From a bacterium (lineage in GTDB: Bacteria; Armatimonadota; JACIXR01), in assembly GCA_014360465.1 (NCBI GenBank), contig JACIXQ010000004.1, forward strand, positions 1 through 57,234: a stretch of 57,234 nucleotides of DNA. The letters run 5' to 3'. Each line of letters starts with the position of its first letter. Within the stretch, counting starts at the first letter, position 1. The position numbers were made by a program, and so were the translations under genes. The notes under the pieces were generated by a model. It did no database searches. It was not told where the DNA came from and worked only from the letters and a program-made list of their open reading frames with translations. Shown in pieces: positions 2,659 through 11,188 of this stretch.

Positions 2659-5211
2659 CTAAGGGGTTGAATTTTCCAATAGCGTCAACCAAAAACTCGC
2701 TGTTGCTGAGGCAAAGCTCCCACATTTGGCATTGCGAGCCTTTTGGAAACTTTCCTTCGCTCTGTCTTTTTTTCCACTATAGCAGAAACATTTCCCTTCC
2801 TCAATTAATGCCACAACACTATCTTCACTTTCAGGATACTGTTTAACAATTCCTTGGAGCACATCAATCGTTCCTTGCATGTCTCCCATTTCGCCAAAGA
2901 AAGATGATAGCCACAAGAGGGTGGAGGAGGTGAGTATATCCTTAAGTTTGGTATATTCATTCATTACTTTTTCTTTCCCTCCTATAGAATATAGATATGG
3001 AGTAATGACCTCCAGCGCAGCCGTCACTATTTCTGGTGAAGTATTTTTATAATTTGATACTAATTTTTCATACTCTTCATATCCTAACTGTTCAAGACCG
3101 GTTAAAAAGTAAATGTCTATTATCGCTAATGAAGCATCCGCTCCTTTTGGGGTGTGAGGATATTTTTCTGCTCTTTCTTTCAACAGGGAAACAGTAATAG
3201 ATCTATCCTTTTCTTCATCATAGTTAAGAGCAAGATAGCTTAGAGCTTGAAAATCCAATAGCTCGGCTACCGCCATTGGTTCTATATCAAGGTAATCTGT
3301 GATGGCATATTTTACCGCTTGGAGTACTATCTCATAATCTTTCGCGAAATAAGCACACACCGCTGTTCCTATAAGTGAGAGGAAGCGATAATCTCCATTA
3401 TAATTGAGCACTTTGCTGTAGGCATCAAGCGCTTCCTTATACTGCTCGCCGTCTTCATAGTAAAGTGCGAGGGTATACCATTTAAGCTCACTATCTGGAA
3501 GGCTTTCATTTAGTCTTTTCAATATCTCCCTCTCTTTTGGGAGATTTCGTCCCGCTCTATACCGCCAGGCAATGTTCATAAGTGCAGAGTTGGCCTTTTC
3601 ATCAGAGGGGTACCTGAGAATAAAATCCTCGTATACCTTTATTGCCTCTTCGTTCCTTCCCAAAAGCGAATACATATCACCTAAGCTAAAGAGAGCTTCC
3701 TTGCTTTCTTTTGTGAACGGATATTCATCCACAACTTTTTTGAACCACTCCGCTGCTTCCGTGTAATGCCTTTGAGCGAAATGCAACCAAGCGATATTAA
3801 TCATTACAGCGGGAACTTTTTCATCATCGGGAAAAAGCTTTATAAATCTCTCATAGAATTTCATAGCTTCCTCGTTTTTTCCCAATGAAGATAACATATC
3901 ACCGGCTCTTATTAAAGCCTCTGGAGCGCACTCAGCTTGGGGGAAGTTCTCAGCCGTTTTCTTGAAGAACAAAGCCGCTTTATCGTAATCTTTCAACTCC
4001 GCATAGCGCCAAGCAATGCTCATCAAAGCGTAGGGGCACTTTGGGTTATTTGGATATTTTTGCAAGAATTCTTGATATATTTTGATTGCTTCTTCGGTTT
4101 TGCCAAGTCGAGCAAGCATATCTCCCGCATACAATAGGGCCTCTGTTCCCTCTATGCTATCAGGAAACTCAGCGTTGATTTTAAAGAATAATTGTGCTGC
4201 TTTCTCACAATCCCCTTTCTCCGAGTAGCGCCAAGCGATATTAGCTAAGGCGGATGGGACCCGTGTATCCCCGGGAAACTTTTCTATAAACTCCTGATAA
4301 GCAGCTATTGCCTCGTCTAATTTTTTAGCATAGGAATACATATCACCAGCCCGGAGAAGCGCCTCGGTTGTAAATTGGCTTTGGGGATAGTCGTTTGCTA
4401 CTTTCTTAAAGGCATCCGCCGCTTTATCATAATTTCGAATTAAAAAGTAACGCCAAGCGATATTCATCCAAGCACCAGCATTGTAGTTTGGGTCAGTGGA
4501 GTAATTTAAGCTCCTCATTTCACAGTCTATCGCCTTTTCAACCTCTCCAATCTCTGCGTATTTCCTCGCCATTTCGTGATACAAATCCCTTGCTAAATCA
4601 GGTGTTGATACTTCTTTAATCTTCAGTGAAAAAACTTGTTCTTCTTTTTTGAATTGTTCATAGATTGACTGCACGGTTAAAAGACGAGCTTTGGCGGAAG
4701 ATAAAAGCGCTTCATCTTTGCTTCCTAAGGTTAGCGCCTCCTGGTAATCCTGCAAAGCTTTTATTAACCATCCTTTCTTCTCAAAGGCGATGCCCCGATT
4801 GTAATAAGCGTAGGCGAGTATATCTCTGGGGGGCTTTTGCCCTATAAGGGATGTAAGAGACTCTATAGCCGAGTCATATTTTCCTTCTTCAATATCGCAC
4901 ATTGCCAAGCCAAGGAACCCGCTCGTCCCGATTTCGCCCTTCCAACGGGAAGCTCTTGAAAAATATTTGCGCGCTTGCTTGGGGTTTCCCAAAGCAAAAT
5001 AACATTGCCCCATCCGAAGATTAGCTTTTGCAATATTTTCATTCCAGCCGGTTCTTTTTAATACCTCCGAAAAATTGTTTATTGCCTCTTGATATCGTTT
5101 AGCTTGGAAGTTAATTTCTCCTTCTTGCAAGATTTCTTTCTGGGCAAGTGATAAGGCAAGAGCGTTCAGGAGGAAAAAATAAAATTGCCATTTAATTGGT
5201 GTTTTTTTCAT
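2659..5211 (-). CDS. Exported TPR-repeat protein
   Basis: 850 aa from the ATG at 5211. This start was chosen because GGAGG lies 8 bases upstream and the protein then begins with a signal peptide (MKKTPIKWQFYFFLLNALAL). The rest is almost entirely tetratricopeptide repeats. Units of about 75 aa recur (ALMNIAWRY...KDYDKAA..FKK...YP.S...EALLRAGDMLS.LGK.EEAI..Y..F...YP), as in YbgF/BamD-type outer-membrane assembly proteins. It is probably a periplasmic or surface scaffold. It follows another exported TPR gene and precedes an exported propeller, so the distal half of the operon looks like a set of exported interaction proteins. No enzyme domain is visible. Confidence 0.85.
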   Translation of the reverse strand: MKKTPIKWQFYFFLLNALALSLAQKEILQEGEINFQAKRYQEAINNFSEVLKRTGWNENIAKANLRMGQCYFALGNPKQARKYFSRASRWKGEIGTSGFLGLAMCDIEEGKYDSAIESLTSLIGQKPPRDILAYAYYNRGIAFEKKGWLIKALQDYQEALTLGSKDEALLSSAKARLLTVQSIYEQFKKEEQVFSLKIKEVSTPDLARDLYHEMARKYAEIGEVEKAIDCEMRSLNYSTDPNYNAGAWMNIAWRYFLIRNYDKAADAFKKVANDYPQSQFTTEALLRAGDMYSYAKKLDEAIAAYQEFIEKFPGDTRVPSALANIAWRYSEKGDCEKAAQLFFKINAEFPDSIEGTEALLYAGDMLARLGKTEEAIKIYQEFLQKYPNNPKCPYALMSIAWRYAELKDYDKAALFFKKTAENFPQAECAPEALIRAGDMLSSLGKNEEAMKFYERFIKLFPDDEKVPAVMINIAWLHFAQRHYTEAAEWFKKVVDEYPFTKESKEALFSLGDMYSLLGRNEEAIKVYEDFILRYPSDEKANSALMNIAWRYRAGRNLPKEREILKRLNESLPDSELKWYTLALYYEDGEQYKEALDAYSKVLNYNGDYRFLSLIGTAVCAYFAKDYEIVLQAVKYAITDYLDIEPMAVAELLDFQALSYLALNYDEEKDRSITVSLLKERAEKYPHTPKGADASLAIIDIYFLTGLEQLGYEEYEKLVSNYKNTSPEIVTAALEVITPYLYSIGGKEKVMNEYTKLKDILTSSTLLWLSSFFGEMGDMQGTIDVLQGIVKQYPESEDSVVALIEEGKCFCYSGKKDRAKESFQKARNAKCGSFASATASFWLTLLENSTP

Positions 5212-5231
5212 AATATTCTCCTCCATTCTAC

Positions 5232-5997
5232 CTACTTCCCATTTATCCCTTGGAGTTTTAGATAAGCTAAAAGGGAAGCTTCCGTATCCGGATACAGCTC
5301 TATGCATCTCTTGTAAGCAACTTTTGCCCGTTCTTTATCGTCGAATTTTTCCAAATAAAGGTCCCCGAGACAAAATAGTAAACCCGCGCTAGCCGACTTT
5401 AGCATTTTCACGATATAACCGATGCCTCTCTATTATCAAAGGCCAACGCAGTTCGTCGACATTTGAAATAAGTTCCTTTAGCCTTCCGTCTGCCTCACTT
5501 ATGGCTGATTCAATTTGAATAAGAAGCGCTTCCTTAAGCACTTGGTAGGCTTCTGGGCGGATTTTAGGAGCAGGAAAAATATGTTTAGATTTTTCAACTT
5601 GAATGGAGTTATTGGGAAACCCTAAAAGAATTTGTAGTTTTGCTTCTGCTTCTCTTCCGAGAGCGCGTATTGTTTCATTTTCGGGATATTTTGGGAGCAA
5701 CTCCCACCATATCTTAAGGGCTCTCGCAGGATTCATAGACGCCCGCTTATAATATACTGCCTCCCAGATAAGGCGCCTTATAAGGGTTCCTTGAACATTT
5801 AGCAAGCATTTTTCAAGCGCCACTTGGGCATCTACCCACTTGCCATTTTTCATCGCATCTTGATAAGCCTTAAACTCTTCCCCCGCCTTTTTAAGGGAAG
5901 TGTAGATGAAAAAGGATGTCCCTTGCCCCCTTGCTACTCCAATATATGTCAGCGATAGGCAAACAACCAGGAGTAAAACTCTCTGTGCTCTAATCAT
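5232..5997 (-). pseudogene. Exported TPR-like protein with a frameshift near its C-terminus
   Basis: The ATG at 5997 has AAGGA upstream and gives a signal peptide (RVLLLVVCLSLTYIGVARGQ). The open frame ends at 5389 after about 200 aa. The neighbouring frame continues immediately with LLFCLGDLYLEKFDDKERAK and a further TPR unit, ending at a TAG at 5232, 21 bases before the next gene. One base must be removed near 5400 to join them. The joined product is about 255 aa and helical, with TPR-like pairs. It overlaps the C39 gene by 8 bp (ATGATTAG), so translation is coupled. The role is unknown; its position suggests an exported partner of the C39 or TPR proteins. Confidence 0.7.
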
Positions 5998-7450
5998 TTC
6001 CTTCCCCAAGAATATGTGCATAAACTGGTATATTTAAAATTTCTTCCCCTGGGACATCGGTGAGGACTTCCAATACACCTTCTATAACCCCCTTTTTGTC
6101 TGCATTCAAGTAGACAGTTATGCGCCACTTTTCGTTAGATATCTTGCAGACATCTAAAGAAACATTTGAGAGGGAACATCTAACTCCCTTTAACCGGAAG
6201 GAAGTCCCATTAATTGAGTGAACATATAAATCCCGCGACGAAGTTTGCATAACTTTTAGAAAACCGAAAAATACGAAGGAAGGACATATCTCTAAATCCC
6301 CCTGCACCCAGATATCCACTGGTATAGTAATGAGAGGCTGATTCCGAGATGTCGTAAGGATGAACAAATCATCATGATACTTGCCTGGAAAGTTGTTACC
6401 CCGATAAGAGAGCCTCAATTGCCAAAGTTGAACATCATCTATGCTATTTTTTTGAAGCTTGTTATCCTTTTCGCTTTCCTCTCCCCTGTTTGTTTCTCGT
6501 CGCAAATTAATCAGATTTATAAGAAAAAGACCCTTTTCGCTTCTCACTTCTTTTATTTCAACATCCGATGGAAGAGTAATTCTGACATTACCGCTAATAG
6601 GGTGCCTTTTTCCACCATGGAGCTCCAAGCTTTTTGGCAAGACCTCAACCTCATAGGGAACTTTTCCGCTTATGGTCAAAAAAACGACCGGCTGAGAAGG
6701 GTCATTGGTAAGCAGCTTAGCGGATAGCTCTATTCTCCCTGGGAACAAGGGGATATATTTTACCGTTACTTGTGTCGTTTCCCCTGGAGGCACGACCTTT
6801 TTCTCCACTAATATATAAGGGACACCACAAGACTCTGATTGAGGCGAAATAAGGAGGTCGCTCTTCCCTTTGTTGGAGATAAGGAAAGTATGTTGTATTT
6901 GCTTTCCCCTCTCTACTTCTCCAACATCAAAGTGGAATTCCTCTAAATGCAAATATGGACCACCCTCATTGGTATATGATTTAGGCTCTAAAATCAACGC
7001 ATATCCAGTATAGCGTGAGGAAATCTCAACTCGGGGAACGCTATAAACCTTCCATCTCCCAATCACTTGGACCCACATCGGAGAAAAGCGTGAAACAGTT
7101 ATAAAATGTTCCGGGTCTTTCAGATGCAGAATTTTTGGCCCAGGGATTTGTTCCAATTCCTCCAAAGTAGCTTGCACACCTATCAGTTTAATTCCTAATT
7201 TGGAAGCCGCTTTCTTTATATCTAACATACTACATTCAGCCTGTGGATAAGCTCTCACTATTCTTTCCTTTTCATCTTCGCTTAGATTCCTCCCCATTAT
7301 ATCACAGAGCCTAAACAAGCTTCTTATCCCACAGCTTTTAGGGGTTACCTCTGCGGGATAGATTATTTCGCCTAAAAGGAAAAACAATAATAAAAATTTT
7401 ACTTCCTCGTTTAAGAGCTTACTCGCGAATAACTTCTCCAGTATCCTCAT
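5990..7450 (-). CDS. Exported C39-like cysteine peptidase fused to DUF1573 domain
   Basis: 486 aa. Residues about 17-33 are a signal peptide or anchor. Residues 38-150 look like peptidase family C39, the family that cuts bacteriocin leaders after double glycine: a catalytic-type Cys in PKSCGIRSLFRLCDIMG, the helix DIKKAASKLGI, and a His in DPEHFITVSRF. The Gln that normally precedes the Cys is not obvious. Residues about 165-260 match DUF1573 (FDVGEVERGKQIQHTFLISN, then a Cys), an Ig-like domain of secreted proteins, and further Ig-like sandwiches follow. Classical C39 domains are cytoplasmic parts of ABC exporters; here there is no ABC domain and the protein appears to work outside the membrane. 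It overlaps the LolA-like gene by 32 bp. A Cys-rich peptide with a GA-type leader lies two genes upstream. Confidence 0.75.
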   Translation of the reverse strand: MRILEKLFASKLLNEEVKFLLLFFLLGEIIYPAEVTPKSCGIRSLFRLCDIMGRNLSEDEKERIVRAYPQAECSMLDIKKAASKLGIKLIGVQATLEELEQIPGPKILHLKDPEHFITVSRFSPMWVQVIGRWKVYSVPRVEISSRYTGYALILEPKSYTNEGGPYLHLEEFHFDVGEVERGKQIQHTFLISNKGKSDLLISPQSESCGVPYILVEKKVVPPGETTQVTVKYIPLFPGRIELSAKLLTNDPSQPVVFLTISGKVPYEVEVLPKSLELHGGKRHPISGNVRITLPSDVEIKEVRSEKGLFLINLINLRRETNRGEESEKDNKLQKNSIDDVQLWQLRLSYRGNNFPGKYHDDLFILTTSRNQPLITIPVDIWVQGDLEICPSFVFFGFLKVMQTSSRDLYVHSINGTSFRLKGVRCSLSNVSLDVCKISNEKWRITVYLNADKKGVIEGVLEVLTDVPGEEILNIPVYAHILGEGND

Positions 7451-8384
7451 TTACAATCATTCCTACCCCTGTTCGTGGAATGGTAAAAACTTTCTCATCT
7501 ACCGACTTGTTAATTTTCAAACTTTTGGTGTCAATTTTAAAAATAGTTTTCCCGATTAGTTCCCCATTTTTGTCCTTTGAAATTCTCTCAATTTTCAGAG
7601 GAAAAACAGTACTCTCAATGGATTTTACCTCTGTTACTTTGAGCTCTTCTGATATCTCTGTGGGCGCCCATTGGCTTTCCCCAATCGGTGAAACTTGTAT
7701 TCTTCTGTAGATGTATAAAGGGAAATAAGTAAACTCAGAGGCGAAAAATACTTCGTATGTTTCTCCTTGGTAATACGCTGCATCTCCTTCACCAATCTTC
7801 ACTTTCGGTTTTTGCAAAGTTAATTTCACACCTTTGTGTCCGAACATTTCCGCTTCGGAATAAGCTGCGACTCCATCAACAAGCCTTTCCCAAGTTGTTT
7901 TTTCCTTCAGTGTAGCGAAACGGGGAATTTCGTTTGGAGCATAAACGAAAGAGTAAAGCTCCAGCAGAACATCATAAGAAGCTGTATCATCCCTAAGCGG
8001 ATTGGAAGAAAAGATTAGAATTCCCTTCTGCTCAATCCCCATCTTATAAAGATATTGATACGATTCACCATTAAAACTATTTATCATTAACCCTTTCTCT
8101 TCACCCTTGGTTCCTTTCATCACCACCTTGCGATAATATTTATCTCCTTTCAGAACAAAGAATACATCGCTGTAGGGTATATCTGCAAGTTCAGCATCTT
8201 GCATCGTTAGAGTGGAGGTATATTCTAAGCTGTCAAGCTTCTGAAAATAGGAAAGTTGATAAAGAAAGACCGTCTTCGCTTGTTCTTTTATATCTTTCCC
8301 CAAAGATAAATCCCATTCCCCAATTATTAGCCCTATAAAAATCAACCACACTATCTTCTTCCTTTTTATATTTTCGATAAACAT
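7419..8384 (-). CDS. LolA-like exported protein (outer-membrane lipoprotein-sorting fold)
   Basis: About 321 aa from the ATG at 8384, chosen because GGGAGGTAGG precedes it. It has an N-terminal hydrophobic signal (KKIVWLIFIGLIIGEWDLSL) and then a series of amphipathic beta strands (LEYTSTLTMQD, FVLKGDKYYRKVVMKG, GVKLTLQKPKV, KTIFKIDTKSLKINK). The ending, DEKVFTIPRTGVGMIVNEDTG, is typical of LolA/LolB-fold proteins in planctomycete-like bacteria. Such half-barrels carry lipids or lipoproteins in the periplasm. It sits between the Cys-rich peptide and the C39-DUF1573 gene. The cargo is not deducible from sequence. Confidence 0.65.
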   Translation of the reverse strand: MFIENIKRKKIVWLIFIGLIIGEWDLSLGKDIKEQAKTVFLYQLSYFQKLDSLEYTSTLTMQDAELADIPYSDVFFVLKGDKYYRKVVMKGTKGEEKGLMINSFNGESYQYLYKMGIEQKGILIFSSNPLRDDTASYDVLLELYSFVYAPNEIPRFATLKEKTTWERLVDGVAAYSEAEMFGHKGVKLTLQKPKVKIGEGDAAYYQGETYEVFFASEFTYFPLYIYRRIQVSPIGESQWAPTEISEELKVTEVKSIESTVFPLKIERISKDKNGELIGKTIFKIDTKSLKINKSVDEKVFTIPRTGVGMIVNEDTGEVIRE

Positions 8385-8449
8385 TATAAACCTACCTCCC
8401 TCCATAGGTTTTAAATATTTCTTACAAAAAGATTTTAAAATTTACCTAT

Positions 8450-8803
8450 CTAAGGGTCAACACTATTTACTATATAACCTCCACAACCTTGTGTTGATAC
8501 ATCTTTACAATCCTTAGCCCATATTACTCCGCATTGATAACCCTTTTCGTTCGCCATATTATCATTAGGATTTGATTGTAACCCGGGTAAGCTTGTCGGA
8601 AGTTTTACGCATCCACCTATACCAGGTATACAAGTTGGATAGGCTGCGCACAGCGCTTCCGTTCCGCAGTAGGGTGGCCCCGAAGCACCACGGATGCTCG
8701 CCATCACCTCGTCGCTTAGTAGCGCCATGCATTGCGTTGGGATAGCACTACCCAGCAACAGAATACATATTAGGACGAGAAAGCAATATACCGTATACCG
8801 CAC
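8450..8803 (-). CDS. Small exported Cys-rich peptide with GG/GA-type leader
   Basis: 117 aa from a GTG at 8803 with AAAGGAGG 8 bases upstream. Residues 5-20 are a hydrophobic signal (VYCFLVLICILLLGS). Next comes LLSDEVMASIRGA, which matches the L(S/T)..EM..I.GG leader that C39 peptidases cut after. The remaining roughly 77 residues hold seven cysteines (46, 52, 58, 65, 91, 99, 107), many Gly and Pro, and no known domain. It could be a precursor matured outside the cell membrane by the C39-DUF1573 protein two genes downstream. The gene follows the sigma factor, and about 75 bases with no clear terminator separate them. Whether it is a bacteriocin, a structural peptide or a substrate-binding peptide is unknown. 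Confidence 0.7.
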   Translation of the reverse strand: MRYTVYCFLVLICILLLGSAIPTQCMALLSDEVMASIRGASGPPYCGTEALCAAYPTCIPGIGGCVKLPTSLPGLQSNPNDNMANEKGYQCGVIWAKDCKDVSTQGCGGYIVNSVDP

Positions 8804-8878
8804 TTCACATTCCTCCTTTACTTTTTACTTAGTGTTTATATATATATGTGCCAATTTTTACGAATTTCGTTGGCGCTT

Positions 8879-9526
8879 TTATTCTAAATTTCCATTACAC
8901 AAGATTTTTAGTAGCTTTAAAGCCTTGGAAAACCTCCACCTTACAGTGCTACTGGGGCAGCCAAGCAACTTCGCCATCCCTTCATAGGAATAACCCTCCA
9001 AATAATAAACTACCACTACCCTATATATTGGAGGAAGACAAGGAATAGCCATTCTCAGATCTTCTATCTCCTCTTCTAATTCTAAACCACTGCTCGCCTC
9101 TTCCTCGGTGTATTTGCTCATATCGCCAGAGAGCTCTGTTTTTCGCCACTTTTTCAAATTCTTCAAACATCTCTTTATCACACGTTCGCTTATCCGCCAG
9201 ATGAAGCTATCAAAATTTCCCTTGCCACCGAACTTCTCTATGCTCTTATATATCTCCAACCTTATTTCGCAATAAACATCTTCCCCATCCACTTTCTTTA
9301 AGCCTTTTCTCCCCTTGAAATAGAAACCTATAGCTTTTCTGACCGTCTCCTCGCATCGCCACCAAATATACTCCCAAGCTTCATCCTTACCAAATGCTTT
9401 AAGAAGCCATTTTATGCAATGATAATCCCATTCCTTCTCATCCTTCCCCTCCAACCTCTTCGCCAGTGCCTTTGCCAGCTCCTCCTCCATCTTGTACCTT
9501 ACCTTGAGAAACTCCTCCGCCCTCAT
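8879..9526 (-). CDS. ECF-type RNA polymerase sigma factor
   Basis: 215 aa from the ATG at 9526. The frame is open further upstream and joined in frame to the membrane-protein ORF, but the upstream gene most plausibly ends in a TGA that overlaps this ATG (ATGA). Residues about 60-140 correspond to sigma region 2. The last 60 residues are region 4, with a clear helix-turn-helix (LPPIYRVVVVYYLEGYSYEG, then AKLLGCPSSTVRWRFSKALK). It would direct RNA polymerase to a small regulon. The following peptide, LolA-like and C39 genes are the natural targets, by position only. No anti-sigma factor is recognisable next to it, although the upstream membrane protein could play that part. Confidence 0.8.
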   Translation of the reverse strand: MRAEEFLKVRYKMEEELAKALAKRLEGKDEKEWDYHCIKWLLKAFGKDEAWEYIWWRCEETVRKAIGFYFKGRKGLKKVDGEDVYCEIRLEIYKSIEKFGGKGNFDSFIWRISERVIKRCLKNLKKWRKTELSGDMSKYTEEEASSGLELEEEIEDLRMAIPCLPPIYRVVVVYYLEGYSYEGMAKLLGCPSSTVRWRFSKALKLLKILCNGNLE

Positions 9527-10357
9527 AGTAAGCTCACCACCGTCTTGTGAAGAAAATAGATGAACATTGAAAGGAAAAATAAAAGCAAAAACCTCCTCTC
9601 CCATACAAGCGCCCTTACACCCAATAGCTCCCACCTCTTCCCCCACCAGAGAAATCGATTGCCTCATCCTGTTGAGGATGGGGAAAACATAGCCCTCCCC
9701 CTTGCACACCGCCGGCTGACGAAGCGTTATGAGGAAAAAGATGAACATCAAAAGACACATAAGTGGCGGGAAAATCCTGGAGAAAAGTGAAACAGCATAT
9801 ATCCCCTTCACTATCTGCAATAGCCCCACCCCCAAAAGTCCATAGGCGATGAATGAGCCAAGAATATAAAAGAAGCCAAGATAGAGGATTCTTCTGCGAG
9901 AAAGACCCGTTAAGAGCGTGAATAAGAGGGCGATTATTGAGAAGGCACAGGGGTCAATTCCATCAAGCAAACCAGCGGAGAGAATGGCAAATATGGAAAG
10001 TGAAGGAAGAGATGGCTTGAACGAAAGCTTGGGAGGAGCTCTTTCCCGCTCTTTCAATACAATTGGGAGGTTTTTCTTTATATCCTCATAGGTTGTGAAG
10101 CAATGGGAGGAGACGAAGAGAGCGAGTGTCCCTCCCCATTTCTCCTCGGGAATCTTGTACGATTTATAGTATTGGAGTAAAAGTCCGATATTCTGGGGAT
10201 TGGATAGGTCGTGTTTGATTATCTTTATCTTCTCCTTTTTCTCCAATTCAGCAAGGAATTTCAGCGTCCTCTGACAATCACCACAGGTTGGACTGTAGAA
10301 TATGTGAACCGTCAAAGCATAGCAGGGGAAGGAGAAAAGGAAAGTGAGCTTCCTCAT
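9523..10357 (-). pseudogene. Thioredoxin-fold / CcdA-like membrane protein, apparently truncated
   Basis: The start overlaps the upstream gene by 4 bp (ATGA). Residues 15-105 resemble a thioredoxin fold with a CxxC (SPTCGDCQ, Cys25 and Cys28). Residues 118-212 are three membrane helices like the first half of CcdA/DsbD, including GIDPCAFSIIALLFTLL, where a Cys-Pro pair is usual. After about residue 233 the similarity stops. The second half with its partner Cys is missing, and the same frame runs on into the sigma factor. The +1 frame in this stretch encodes a hydrophobic tail (RRFLLLFFLSMFIYFLHK) and ends in a TGA overlapping the sigma-factor ATG. A deletion plus a frameshift near 9660 is likely. 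An intact version would move electrons across the membrane to exported thiols. Confidence 0.55.
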
Positions 10358-11160
10358 TTGAGCCTCGCCCCCAGGATTATGAGGTTAGTGTAGTTCCCCT
10401 CGTAGCTTTTCGCCAGGAGGGACTTGCCATCGTAGAGAAGAAGGAATATGTTTTCCTTTCCCTCCAAGGGAAGGGAGAGATAGCCCACTCCGACATAGGA
10501 ATCAGCCTCCCTTCGCTCCTTAGCCCTATCTGGCTCTCTCCCTTCCCTATCATAGATGAAGCTGACGATTGCCGCTCTTCCCCAGGAAATCTCCCTTTTA
10601 TAGAAATCAAGGGGATTTTCCCCACTTTTGAGCTTGTATATCTCCCTTACCTCCAAATCCTTGCCCTTATATTTTGCGAAATCCCGCAAGCCCTTCCCTA
10701 TGTCGTATATCAGTGGTTTGCCAGGGAGATTGCAGAGGCATTTCTCTATGAAGACATTCAGGGAAGCTATGAATACTTTCTCCGGTTCCTTTCCACCCAA
10801 GCCGAGCTGGGCTAAAAGGATGGCTGAGGCGGTTGCGTGGCTATTGAGGAAGAAGGTAAAGCGAGGGAAATCCTTTATTCTCACAAACTTCTCCAAAGAA
10901 GGGAGATTGAATTCAGCCAACCTACCCTTATCATCAAGGAGAAGATAGCCGATTTCCTTGTTATCGCAGATGATGGGATACTTACGGAAAAGAAGGGAAT
11001 GGATTTTTAAGTTCTCCAACTTACCAAGCTGGGAGTTTTTAGGAGCGAGGTTAAGGGATTTCAGCTTTTGGAGGTAATCAAGGGAGCCTCCCCCAAGGAG
11101 CAATACTCCTCCGAGAGAGAGAGAGAGAGAGAGAATGAGATTAATCAGATAGCGCCTCAC
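10354..11160 (-). CDS. Exported C39/papain-like fold protein lacking catalytic residues
   Basis: About 268 aa. The GTG at 11160 is preferred because AAAGGG lies 8 bases upstream; a GTG at 11169 is directly abutted by the purine run. A signal peptide (LINLILSLSLSLGGVLLLGG) leads to a region with the layout of C39-like peptidases. FLNSHATASAILLAQLG sits where a Cys-Gly-x-Thr helix is usual, then EISWGRAAIVSF, then a strand VGVGYL where the catalytic His normally precedes. The Cys and His are not seen, so this looks like a pseudo-peptidase, possibly a binding protein. The fold assignment is inference from motif spacing only. It is the first gene of the minus-strand operon and overlaps the next by 4 bp. 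Confidence 0.5.
   Translation of the reverse strand: MRRYLINLILSLSLSLGGVLLLGGGSLDYLQKLKSLNLAPKNSQLGKLENLKIHSLLFRKYPIICDNKEIGYLLLDDKGRLAEFNLPSLEKFVRIKDFPRFTFFLNSHATASAILLAQLGLGGKEPEKVFIASLNVFIEKCLCNLPGKPLIYDIGKGLRDFAKYKGKDLEVREIYKLKSGENPLDFYKREISWGRAAIVSFIYDREGREPDRAKERREADSYVGVGYLSLPLEGKENIFLLLYDGKSLLAKSYEGNYTNLIILGARLK
11113..11134. repeat. (GA)11 / (TC)11 dinucleotide tract in a signal-peptide coding region
   Basis: Eleven perfect GA units on the plus strand lie inside codons about 9-16 of the minus-strand gene starting at 11160, where they encode alternating Ser-Leu. Gain or loss of one unit would shift the frame close to the start, the arrangement found in phase-variable genes. Confidence 0.9.
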
Positions 11161-11188
11161 TTCTCTCACCCTTTAACCTAACACTTAA

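What the first reader, a model, noticed from the sequence alone, without database searches (positions are those of the whole stretch)
5232..11160. Candidate peptide-maturation operon: C39 peptidase-DUF1573, Cys-rich GA-leader peptide, LolA-like carrier, pseudo-C39 and ECF sigma factor
Seen: one minus-strand run with 4- to 32-bp overlaps at most junctions holds a small exported Cys-rich peptide with an LSDEVMASIRGA leader, a signal-bearing C39-like protease with no ABC domain, a LolA-like protein, a C39-like protein without Cys/His, a CxxC membrane protein and an ECF sigma factor. Known: C39 domains cut GG-type leaders but usually inside ABC exporters. Inferred: peptide and protease meet after Sec export, and the sigma factor controls the set.
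Basis: partly seen in the sequence, partly recalled or inferred. Interest (0 to 1): 0.75.

Follow-up and report, generated by a model that had tools for sequence, protein, structure and literature searches.

The report
Exported leader-peptide and protease cassette
The bacterium appears to export small cysteine-rich peptides first and only then trim off a classic "double-glycine" leader with an equally exported protease, the reverse of the textbook order in which the export pump itself cuts from inside the cell; the same gene cassette recurs in many families of Armatimonadota and in a second phylum.

Summary
On the minus strand lie an ECF sigma factor, a Sec-exported Cys-rich peptide carrying LSDEVMASIRGA, a LolA-fold protein, an exported C39-DUF1573 protein and two TPR proteins. 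The genome (Armatimonadota, judged from named relatives) holds a second copy in the same order, and a third locus with two more leader peptides, each followed by a LolA-C39 fusion gene. All four C39 domains of the genome sit in these cassettes, none in an ABC exporter. In relatives, including a second unnamed phylum, 36 of 43 peptides encoded near a C39 gene pass a leave-family-out test for the leader; 0 of 4 do where C39 is dead or missing (Fisher P=0.002). The leader is the canonical LSx2ELx2IxGG type, 0-8 residues after a putative signal-peptidase site. Best reading: Sec exports pro-peptide and protease, and C39 removes the leader outside the cytoplasm. FapD of the Pseudomonas amyloid system is the closest precedent. 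Not supported: the "pseudo-C39" call for 10354-11169 and an intact CxxC/DsbD gene (truncated here); sigma control rests on adjacency. The function of the mature peptide is unknown, and the peptides match no Pfam or NCBIfam family.

The parts
8879..9525 (-). ECF sigma factor (regions 2 and 4); likely start ATG at 9525, inside the longer mechanical ORF 8879-10357
   Evidence: Pfam Sigma70_r4_2 2.3e-11, Sigma70_r2 2.1e-4; partial paralogue on C10 in the same place
8450..8803 (-). 117-aa exported Cys-rich peptide precursor (GTG start)
   Evidence: paralogue on C10 64% identical with all mature Cys kept
8684..8719 (-). Double-glycine-type leader LSDEVMASIRGA (residues 29-40); predicted cut after GA, giving SGPPYCG...
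   Evidence: leave-family-out matrix score 24.8 bits, shuffle p=0.002
7419..8405 (-). LolA-superfamily exported protein, 328 aa
   Evidence: AlphaFold pLDDT 82.6; Foldseek LolA-superfamily hits; profile match to LolA-type PDB chains 1.1e-8
5990..7450 (-). Exported C39-DUF1573 protein, 486 aa; predicted catalytic Cys40 and His115; Gly131 where Asp is usual
   Evidence: Pfam; profile match to ComA/PCAT1 C39 domains 1e-14 with Cys and His aligned; Cys/His table
6977..7348 (-). C39 peptidase domain (residues 35-158)
   Evidence: Pfam PF03412 40.5 bits, cut-off 22
6659..6946 (-). DUF1573 / OS_HP2-type domain with the conserved Cys that is read as TGA in some relatives
5232..6021 (-). Small TPR gene, split by a 1-nt insertion relative to the intact 262-aa paralogue (mechanical ORFs 5389-6021 and 5232-5411)
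2659..5211 (-). Large TPR gene, 850 aa from ATG at about 5211
   Evidence: Pfam TPR repeats; paralogue of 850 aa, 84.5% identical, same position on C10
9526..10357 (-). Truncated CxxC / DsbD-like membrane protein gene upstream, doubtful member
   Evidence: DsbD_TM 0.0044 below cut-off; shorter than the 382-aa relative in L037
10354..11169 (-). Conserved protein of unknown fold beside similar cassettes in L037, L069 and L070; doubtful member, not shown to be C39-like

Best explanation
This is an export-then-trim peptide maturation cassette. A small Cys-rich precursor is exported by Sec. Signal peptidase removes the hydrophobic signal close to a 12-residue double-glycine-type leader. The exported C39 domain then cuts after GG, GA or GS and frees a peptide of about 70-155 residues. 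The LolA-fold protein, encoded between the two and in some loci fused to C39, most likely holds or hands over the pro-peptide. The DUF1573 domain, whose conserved Cys is probably selenocysteine in some relatives, may act on the peptide's thiols. Shown by comparison: the gene set, the leader, the link between leader and catalytic residues, the fusions, and the lack of an ABC-type C39 exporter in this genome. Inferred: the cleavage itself, the LolA and DUF1573 roles, and sigma control. Unknown: what the mature peptide does.
For: Same order in a second copy and across many families and a second phylum. Leader found in 36 of 43 peptides near C39 genes against 6 of 185 control ORFs above 8 bits, at 0-8 residues from an AxA-like site. 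Leader absent from 4 of 4 peptides beside dead or missing C39. LolA-C39 fusions in L058, L069, L070 and LolA-C39-DUF1573 fusions in L136, L139, L142. Exactly four C39 domains in this genome, all in these loci, matching four leader peptides. A profile built from peptides alone recovers further peptide-LolA and peptide-LolA-C39 loci. C39 homology to ComA/PCAT1 at 1e-14 with Cys and His aligned. Precedent: FapD is exported by Sec and needs its active-site Cys (PMC5557850).
Against: No cleavage has been measured. The window and C10 copies lack the Asp of the C39 site, and no Gln is aligned in the family. Some intact C39 genes have no recognised peptide nearby (L043, L049, L052, L070, L073, L147; some are near contig ends). 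Only four dead-C39 peptides, with relatedness not modelled. The leader matrix was seeded from the same collection, although each family was left out in its own test.
Confidence: 0.78

Rival explanations
1. The C39 domain is a non-cutting leader-binding module, like the C39-like domains of some type 1 exporters: it docks the leader and presents the Cys-rich peptide to DUF1573 for disulfide or selenol chemistry.
For: Asp missing in the window and C10 copies and no aligned Gln; DUF1573 Cys is a TGA in relatives, hinting at redox work; cited type 1 precedent of inactive C39-like domains (PMC5557850).
Against: Cys and His are kept in nearly all leader-bearing loci and lost where the leader is lost; the GG/GA at the cleavage position is itself conserved, which binding alone would not need; the LolA-C39 fusions of the same genome keep Cys, His and Asp.
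Confidence: 0.12
2. The leader peptides are processed and exported by an ordinary C39 ABC exporter encoded elsewhere, and the hydrophobic N-terminus is incidental.
For: The leader is the canonical type cut by such exporters (PMC3897388).
Against: The only four C39 domains in this 97.8% complete genome are the exported ones; the hydrophobic segment with an AxA-like site precedes the leader throughout.
Confidence: 0.03
3. The unit is a chance or merely housekeeping gene neighbourhood: envelope genes with a Cys-rich secreted protein whose LSxxEM...GG stretch is fortuitous.
For: The upstream genes (10354-11169 and the truncated DsbD gene) do look like remnants of another unit; DUF1573 and TPR proteins are common in these genomes.
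Against: Conserved order in two phyla, gene fusions, and leader statistics.
Confidence: 0.02
4. The exported peptides are structural or redox components of the envelope (matrix or amyloid-like subunits, or thiol/metal carriers working with the multihaem cytochromes encoded next to some cassettes) and not signals or antimicrobials; C39 trims them for assembly, as FapD serves amyloid secretion.
For: FapD precedent (PMC5557850); cytochrome c554-type genes with an EPCGC..QxGG..RR stretch beside cassettes in both phyla (L046, L135); glycosyltransferases beside others; purifying selection between the two copies (dN/dS about 0.15).
Against: No amyloid repeats or haem motifs in the peptides; the cytochrome gene is absent near the window cassette. 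This concerns the peptide's role and is compatible with the best explanation.
Confidence: 0.35

Closest known systems
FapD of the Pseudomonas functional-amyloid (Fap) system
   Same: Stand-alone C39 protease with a Sec signal acting in the periplasm; active-site Cys essential for secretion of its system (PMC5557850)
   Different: FapD's target was unclear and Fap proteins lack canonical leaders, whereas here a neighbouring peptide has one. Here C39 is joined to DUF1573 or LolA. Far below the NCBIfam FapD cut-off (14.5 against 330 bits)
C39-containing ABC exporters (PCAT1, ComA) and double-glycine bacteriocins or microcins
   Same: Homologous peptidase domain (1e-14) and the same leader consensus (LSX2ELX2IXGG, PMC3897388)
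   Different: No ABC or membrane-exporter domain; precursor and protease carry their own export signals; none of this genome's C39 domains is in an exporter
LolA / LolA_like / DUF2092 superfamily
   Same: Fold and family-profile match
   Different: Encoded between a leader peptide and C39, sometimes fused to C39; lipoprotein transport is not indicated
OS_HP2 / DUF1573 selenoproteins
   Same: DUF1573 with conserved Cys, TGA at that place in relatives (DUF1573 listed as a selenoprotein family in PMC9312934)
   Different: Here fused behind a C39 protease; window copy has Cys and scores below the NCBIfam cut-off (48.7 against 100 bits)
Bacteroidota NVEAL peptides
   Same: Recalled from memory only: Sec signal, short motif, Cys-rich tail
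   Different: None of 15 peptides matched such a Pfam family; no paper found with the term

Membership tests
Peptidase C39 (domain of 5990-7450) | Profile match over the curated cut-off | tested here: met
   PF03412 40.5 bits, cut-off 22
Peptidase C39 (domain of 5990-7450) | Catalytic Cys and His | tested here: met
   Cys40 and His115 align with ComA's site; C and H read in nearly all relatives
Peptidase C39 (domain of 5990-7450) | Catalytic Asp and oxyanion Gln | tested here: not met
   Asp is Gly131 in the window and C10 copies, present in several relatives; no aligned Gln in the family
Peptidase C39 (domain of 5990-7450) | Cuts after GG/GA of a leader | not testable with these tools
   Needs an enzyme assay
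Double-glycine leader peptides | LSxxELxxIxGG-type leader next to the mature part | tested here: met
   LSDEVMASIRGA; family statistics
Double-glycine leader peptides | Cognate C39 ABC exporter | tested here: not met
   Four C39 domains in the genome, none in an ABC exporter
FapD (NCBIfam NF058616) | Equivalog score over 330 bits | tested here: not met
   14.5 bits
FapD (NCBIfam NF058616) | Sec-exported stand-alone C39 | tested here: inconclusive
   Signal-like hydrophobic N-terminus by inspection; no signal-peptide predictor available
LolA superfamily (7419-8405) | LolA fold | tested here: met
   AlphaFold plus Foldseek; TM-scores to targets only about 0.5
LolA superfamily (7419-8405) | Carries lipoproteins or lipid | not testable with these tools
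   -
C39-like fold for 10354-11169 | Profile or structural match to C39 | tested here: inconclusive
   No hhalign, Pfam or PDB match; AlphaFold pLDDT 45.7
Selenoprotein DUF1573 in relatives | In-frame TGA at the conserved Cys in genomes with SelB | tested here: met
   a SECIS element was not searched for. Window copy has Cys
ECF-controlled operon | Sigma-dependent promoter and expression of the set | not tested
   Adjacency only: window, C10, L061, L134, L145, L147

The most novel reading that the evidence does not exclude
A widespread, undescribed class of secreted Cys-rich peptides made by an ABC-independent route: Sec export, holding by a LolA-fold partner, thiol or selenol handling by DUF1573, double-glycine leader removal by an exported C39, and in one phylum possible glycosylation by an adjacent STT3/PMT-type enzyme, under an ECF sigma factor.
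Probability: 0.4. Interest if true: 0.82.

Novelty: new variant of a known kind. Interest (0 to 1): 0.68.

Why it matters
Double-glycine leaders are understood as tickets for ABC exporters that cut them at the cytosolic face of the membrane. FapD showed that a C39 protease can work in the periplasm, but its substrate was unclear. Here protease and an obvious leader-bearing substrate are neighbours in many genomes, so what periplasmic C39 peptidases cut becomes directly testable with two small genes. It also opens a family of Cys-rich secreted peptides that no Pfam or NCBIfam model names, and puts a Cys/Sec DUF1573 domain in a plausible substrate context.

Tried and rejected
The genome-contig scan with the 12-row alignment failed for lack of conserved stretches; a four-row subset gave only five Armatimonadota loci. 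Plasmid tblastn found mainly ABC-type C39 or generic repeat proteins. L058 looked like a counter-example (leader peptide beside DUF1573 genes without C39) until the gene in between proved to be a LolA-C39 fusion. Diversifying selection on the peptide was considered and not supported: dN/dS about 0.15, with peptide dS 1.9 against 0.2-0.4 for the machinery genes, which fits homogenisation of the machinery. A shared CG-x-W-x-C motif in the mature parts is only weakly above shuffles (12 against mean 5.5, maximum 12 in 500) and is not claimed. AlphaFold of 10354-11169 was uninformative. One script failed for a wrong file name.
Full report
What is there. The minus strand of the window from 9525 down to 2659 carries, in order, an ECF sigma gene, a 117-aa peptide precursor, a LolA-like gene, a C39-DUF1573 gene, a small TPR gene and a large TPR gene. 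Two upstream genes (10354-11169 and the CxxC/DsbD-like stretch 9526-10357) overlap by 4 nt, but the DsbD-like gene is truncated relative to its 382-aa relative in L037 and reads on into the ECF frame. The small TPR gene is split by one inserted base relative to an intact paralogue.

The genome repeats it. The window is contig C96 of a 2.69-Mb, 97.8% complete assembly. Contig C10 (6.9 kb) carries a partial ECF gene, then peptide, LolA-like, C39-DUF1573, small TPR and large TPR in the same order. Amino-acid identities are 64% (peptide), 81% (LolA-like), 91% (C39-DUF1573) and 84.5% (large TPR). Contig C124 carries two more precursors (with IALSEVQMENAKAGC and IALSESQMENAKAGC), each followed by a LolA-C39 fusion gene, the first after a separate LolA-like gene. 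A Pfam C39 search of the whole genome finds exactly four domains, all in these loci: four C39 domains, four leader peptides, no C39-containing ABC exporter.

Relatives. Searches of 291 genomes of the phylum found C39-DUF1573 relatives with both domains in roughly 20 genomes of many families; named records are Armatimonadota MAGs. In other phyla sampled, matches covered DUF1573 only, except in the 85-genome unnamed phylum of G328, where full-length C39-DUF1573 genes are common. The neighbourhoods show the order peptide, LolA-like, C39-DUF1573, often with a TPR gene in front in Armatimonadota, and in several loci of the second phylum an STT3/PMT-type glycosyltransferase gene behind. ECF genes precede the cassette in L061, L134, L145 and L147. 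LolA is fused to C39 in L069 (twice), L070 and L058, and to C39-DUF1573 in L136, L139 and L142. Fusion is strong evidence that the two products work together. A profile of the peptides alone, searched over both phyla, recovered the known loci plus others with a LolA-like gene, and in L196 and L198 also a C39 gene, nearby.

The leader. In 36 of 43 precursors encoded near a C39 gene, the best 12-mer in the stretch after the signal core beats its own shuffles at p<0.01, with a matrix built without that family. One miss (L046) came from a start codon placed too far upstream; by eye it has LSDEEAGKVRGS. The commonest residues are L-[ST]-[DE]-E-[EQ]-M-A-x-[VLI]-x-G-[GA], the canonical double-glycine leader (LSX2ELX2IXGG, PMC3897388). 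It starts 0-8 residues after an AxA-like site (a pattern, not a signal-peptide predictor), so little but the leader would remain after signal-peptidase cleavage. Of 185 other exported ORFs in the same loci, 6 score above 8 bits; the top one (L064:14748, LSMEEMGKIVGG) looks like a further precursor.

Natural knock-outs. Catalytic Cys and His were read for every C39 gene. Four Cys-rich exported peptides stand beside a dead, degenerate or absent C39 (L044, L051, L074, L151), and none has the leader (Fisher P=0.0019). L150 and L151 are related loci: in L150 the Cys is present and the peptide has LSEIEMLATQGA; in L151 the Cys is Ser and the peptide has no leader. Genes with a Ser-type C39 (L152, L153, L158-L160) have no recognised peptide at all. 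The sample of four is small and relatedness was not modelled.

The protease and its partner domain. The family profile matches ComA and PCAT1 C39 structures at 1e-14 with Cys and His aligned. The window and C10 copies lack the Asp (Gly131), and no aligned Gln is seen in the family, so efficient catalysis must be shown by experiment. DUF1573 carries a conserved Cys that aligns with an in-frame TGA in L041, L043, L152, L153, L158 and L160. SelB passes its cut-off in the TGA-bearing genomes tested (G274, G477, G478, G461, G467), also in G229, and not in G000, G282 or G400. This supports selenocysteine there and a redox or thiol role for the domain, in line with the listing of DUF1573 among selenoprotein families (PMC9312934). 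No SECIS element was looked for.

The LolA-like protein. AlphaFold on a 33-row alignment gives pLDDT 82.6; Foldseek returns LolA-superfamily structures and the family profile matches LolA-type chains at 1e-8. Whether it holds the pro-peptide or carries lipid is unknown.

What it is like, and what it is not. It works like double-glycine leader processing moved across the membrane. The nearest precedent is FapD, a Sec-exported C39 whose active-site Cys is required but whose substrate was unclear (PMC5557850); by the NCBIfam equivalog it is not a FapD (14.5 bits against 330). It is not an ABC-exporter system. Fifteen peptides from across the family match no Pfam or NCBIfam family convincingly. 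Text searches found no description of an exported double-glycine peptide paired with an exported C39, FapD being the nearest; the library is open-access only, so this is not proof of novelty.

Limits. Everything is sequence comparison on draft assemblies, and several loci stop at contig ends. Some intact C39 genes have no recognised peptide (L043, L049, L052, L070, L073, L147). Cleavage, sigma control, the LolA and DUF1573 roles and the peptide's function are inferences or open. The second phylum carries no name in these tools.

Noticed in passing
L041, L043 (genome G274, same phylum); L152, L153, L158, L160 (second phylum): In-frame TGA at the conserved DUF1573 Cys of C39-DUF1573 proteins; SelB is over cut-off in the TGA-bearing genomes tested. 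Probable selenoproteins.
   Followed up: partly
L046:8570-9799, L135:208-1596; similar-looking ORFs in L051, L059, L062, L143, L144, L148, L150: A protein with an EPCGC..QxGG..RR stretch, with cytochrome c554/c7-type matches in the two scanned, lies beside the cassette in both phyla.
   Followed up: partly
L135:7369-10047, L143:6231-8807, L149:3289-5070, L200:2672-4417: STT3 or PMT-type glycosyltransferase genes directly behind the cassette in the second phylum, suggesting possible glycosylation.
   Followed up: partly
window 9526-10357: DsbD-like CxxC gene truncated and reading in frame into the ECF gene; looks like a recombination joint between two cassettes.
   Followed up: partly
window 5232-6021: One-base insertion splits the small TPR gene that is intact on C10; mutation or assembly error not distinguished.
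   Followed up: partly
window 2659-8803 against L006: Peptide genes of the two copies are far more diverged at silent sites (dS 1.9) than the machinery genes (0.2-0.4), and the C39-DUF1573 copies differ mostly in the signal region; suggests gene conversion of the machinery.
   Followed up: partly
L057:7467-13566 (G229 contig C23): C39-DUF1573-like gene without catalytic Cys between WD40-like proteins, followed by what look like radical-SAM and PqqD-like genes; possibly a different modified-peptide system.
   Followed up: no
L069:11927-13687, L070:2567-3529, L155:2-1360: Rhs/YD-repeat-like ORFs close to C39 cassettes in this genome, a sister species and another genome.
   Followed up: no
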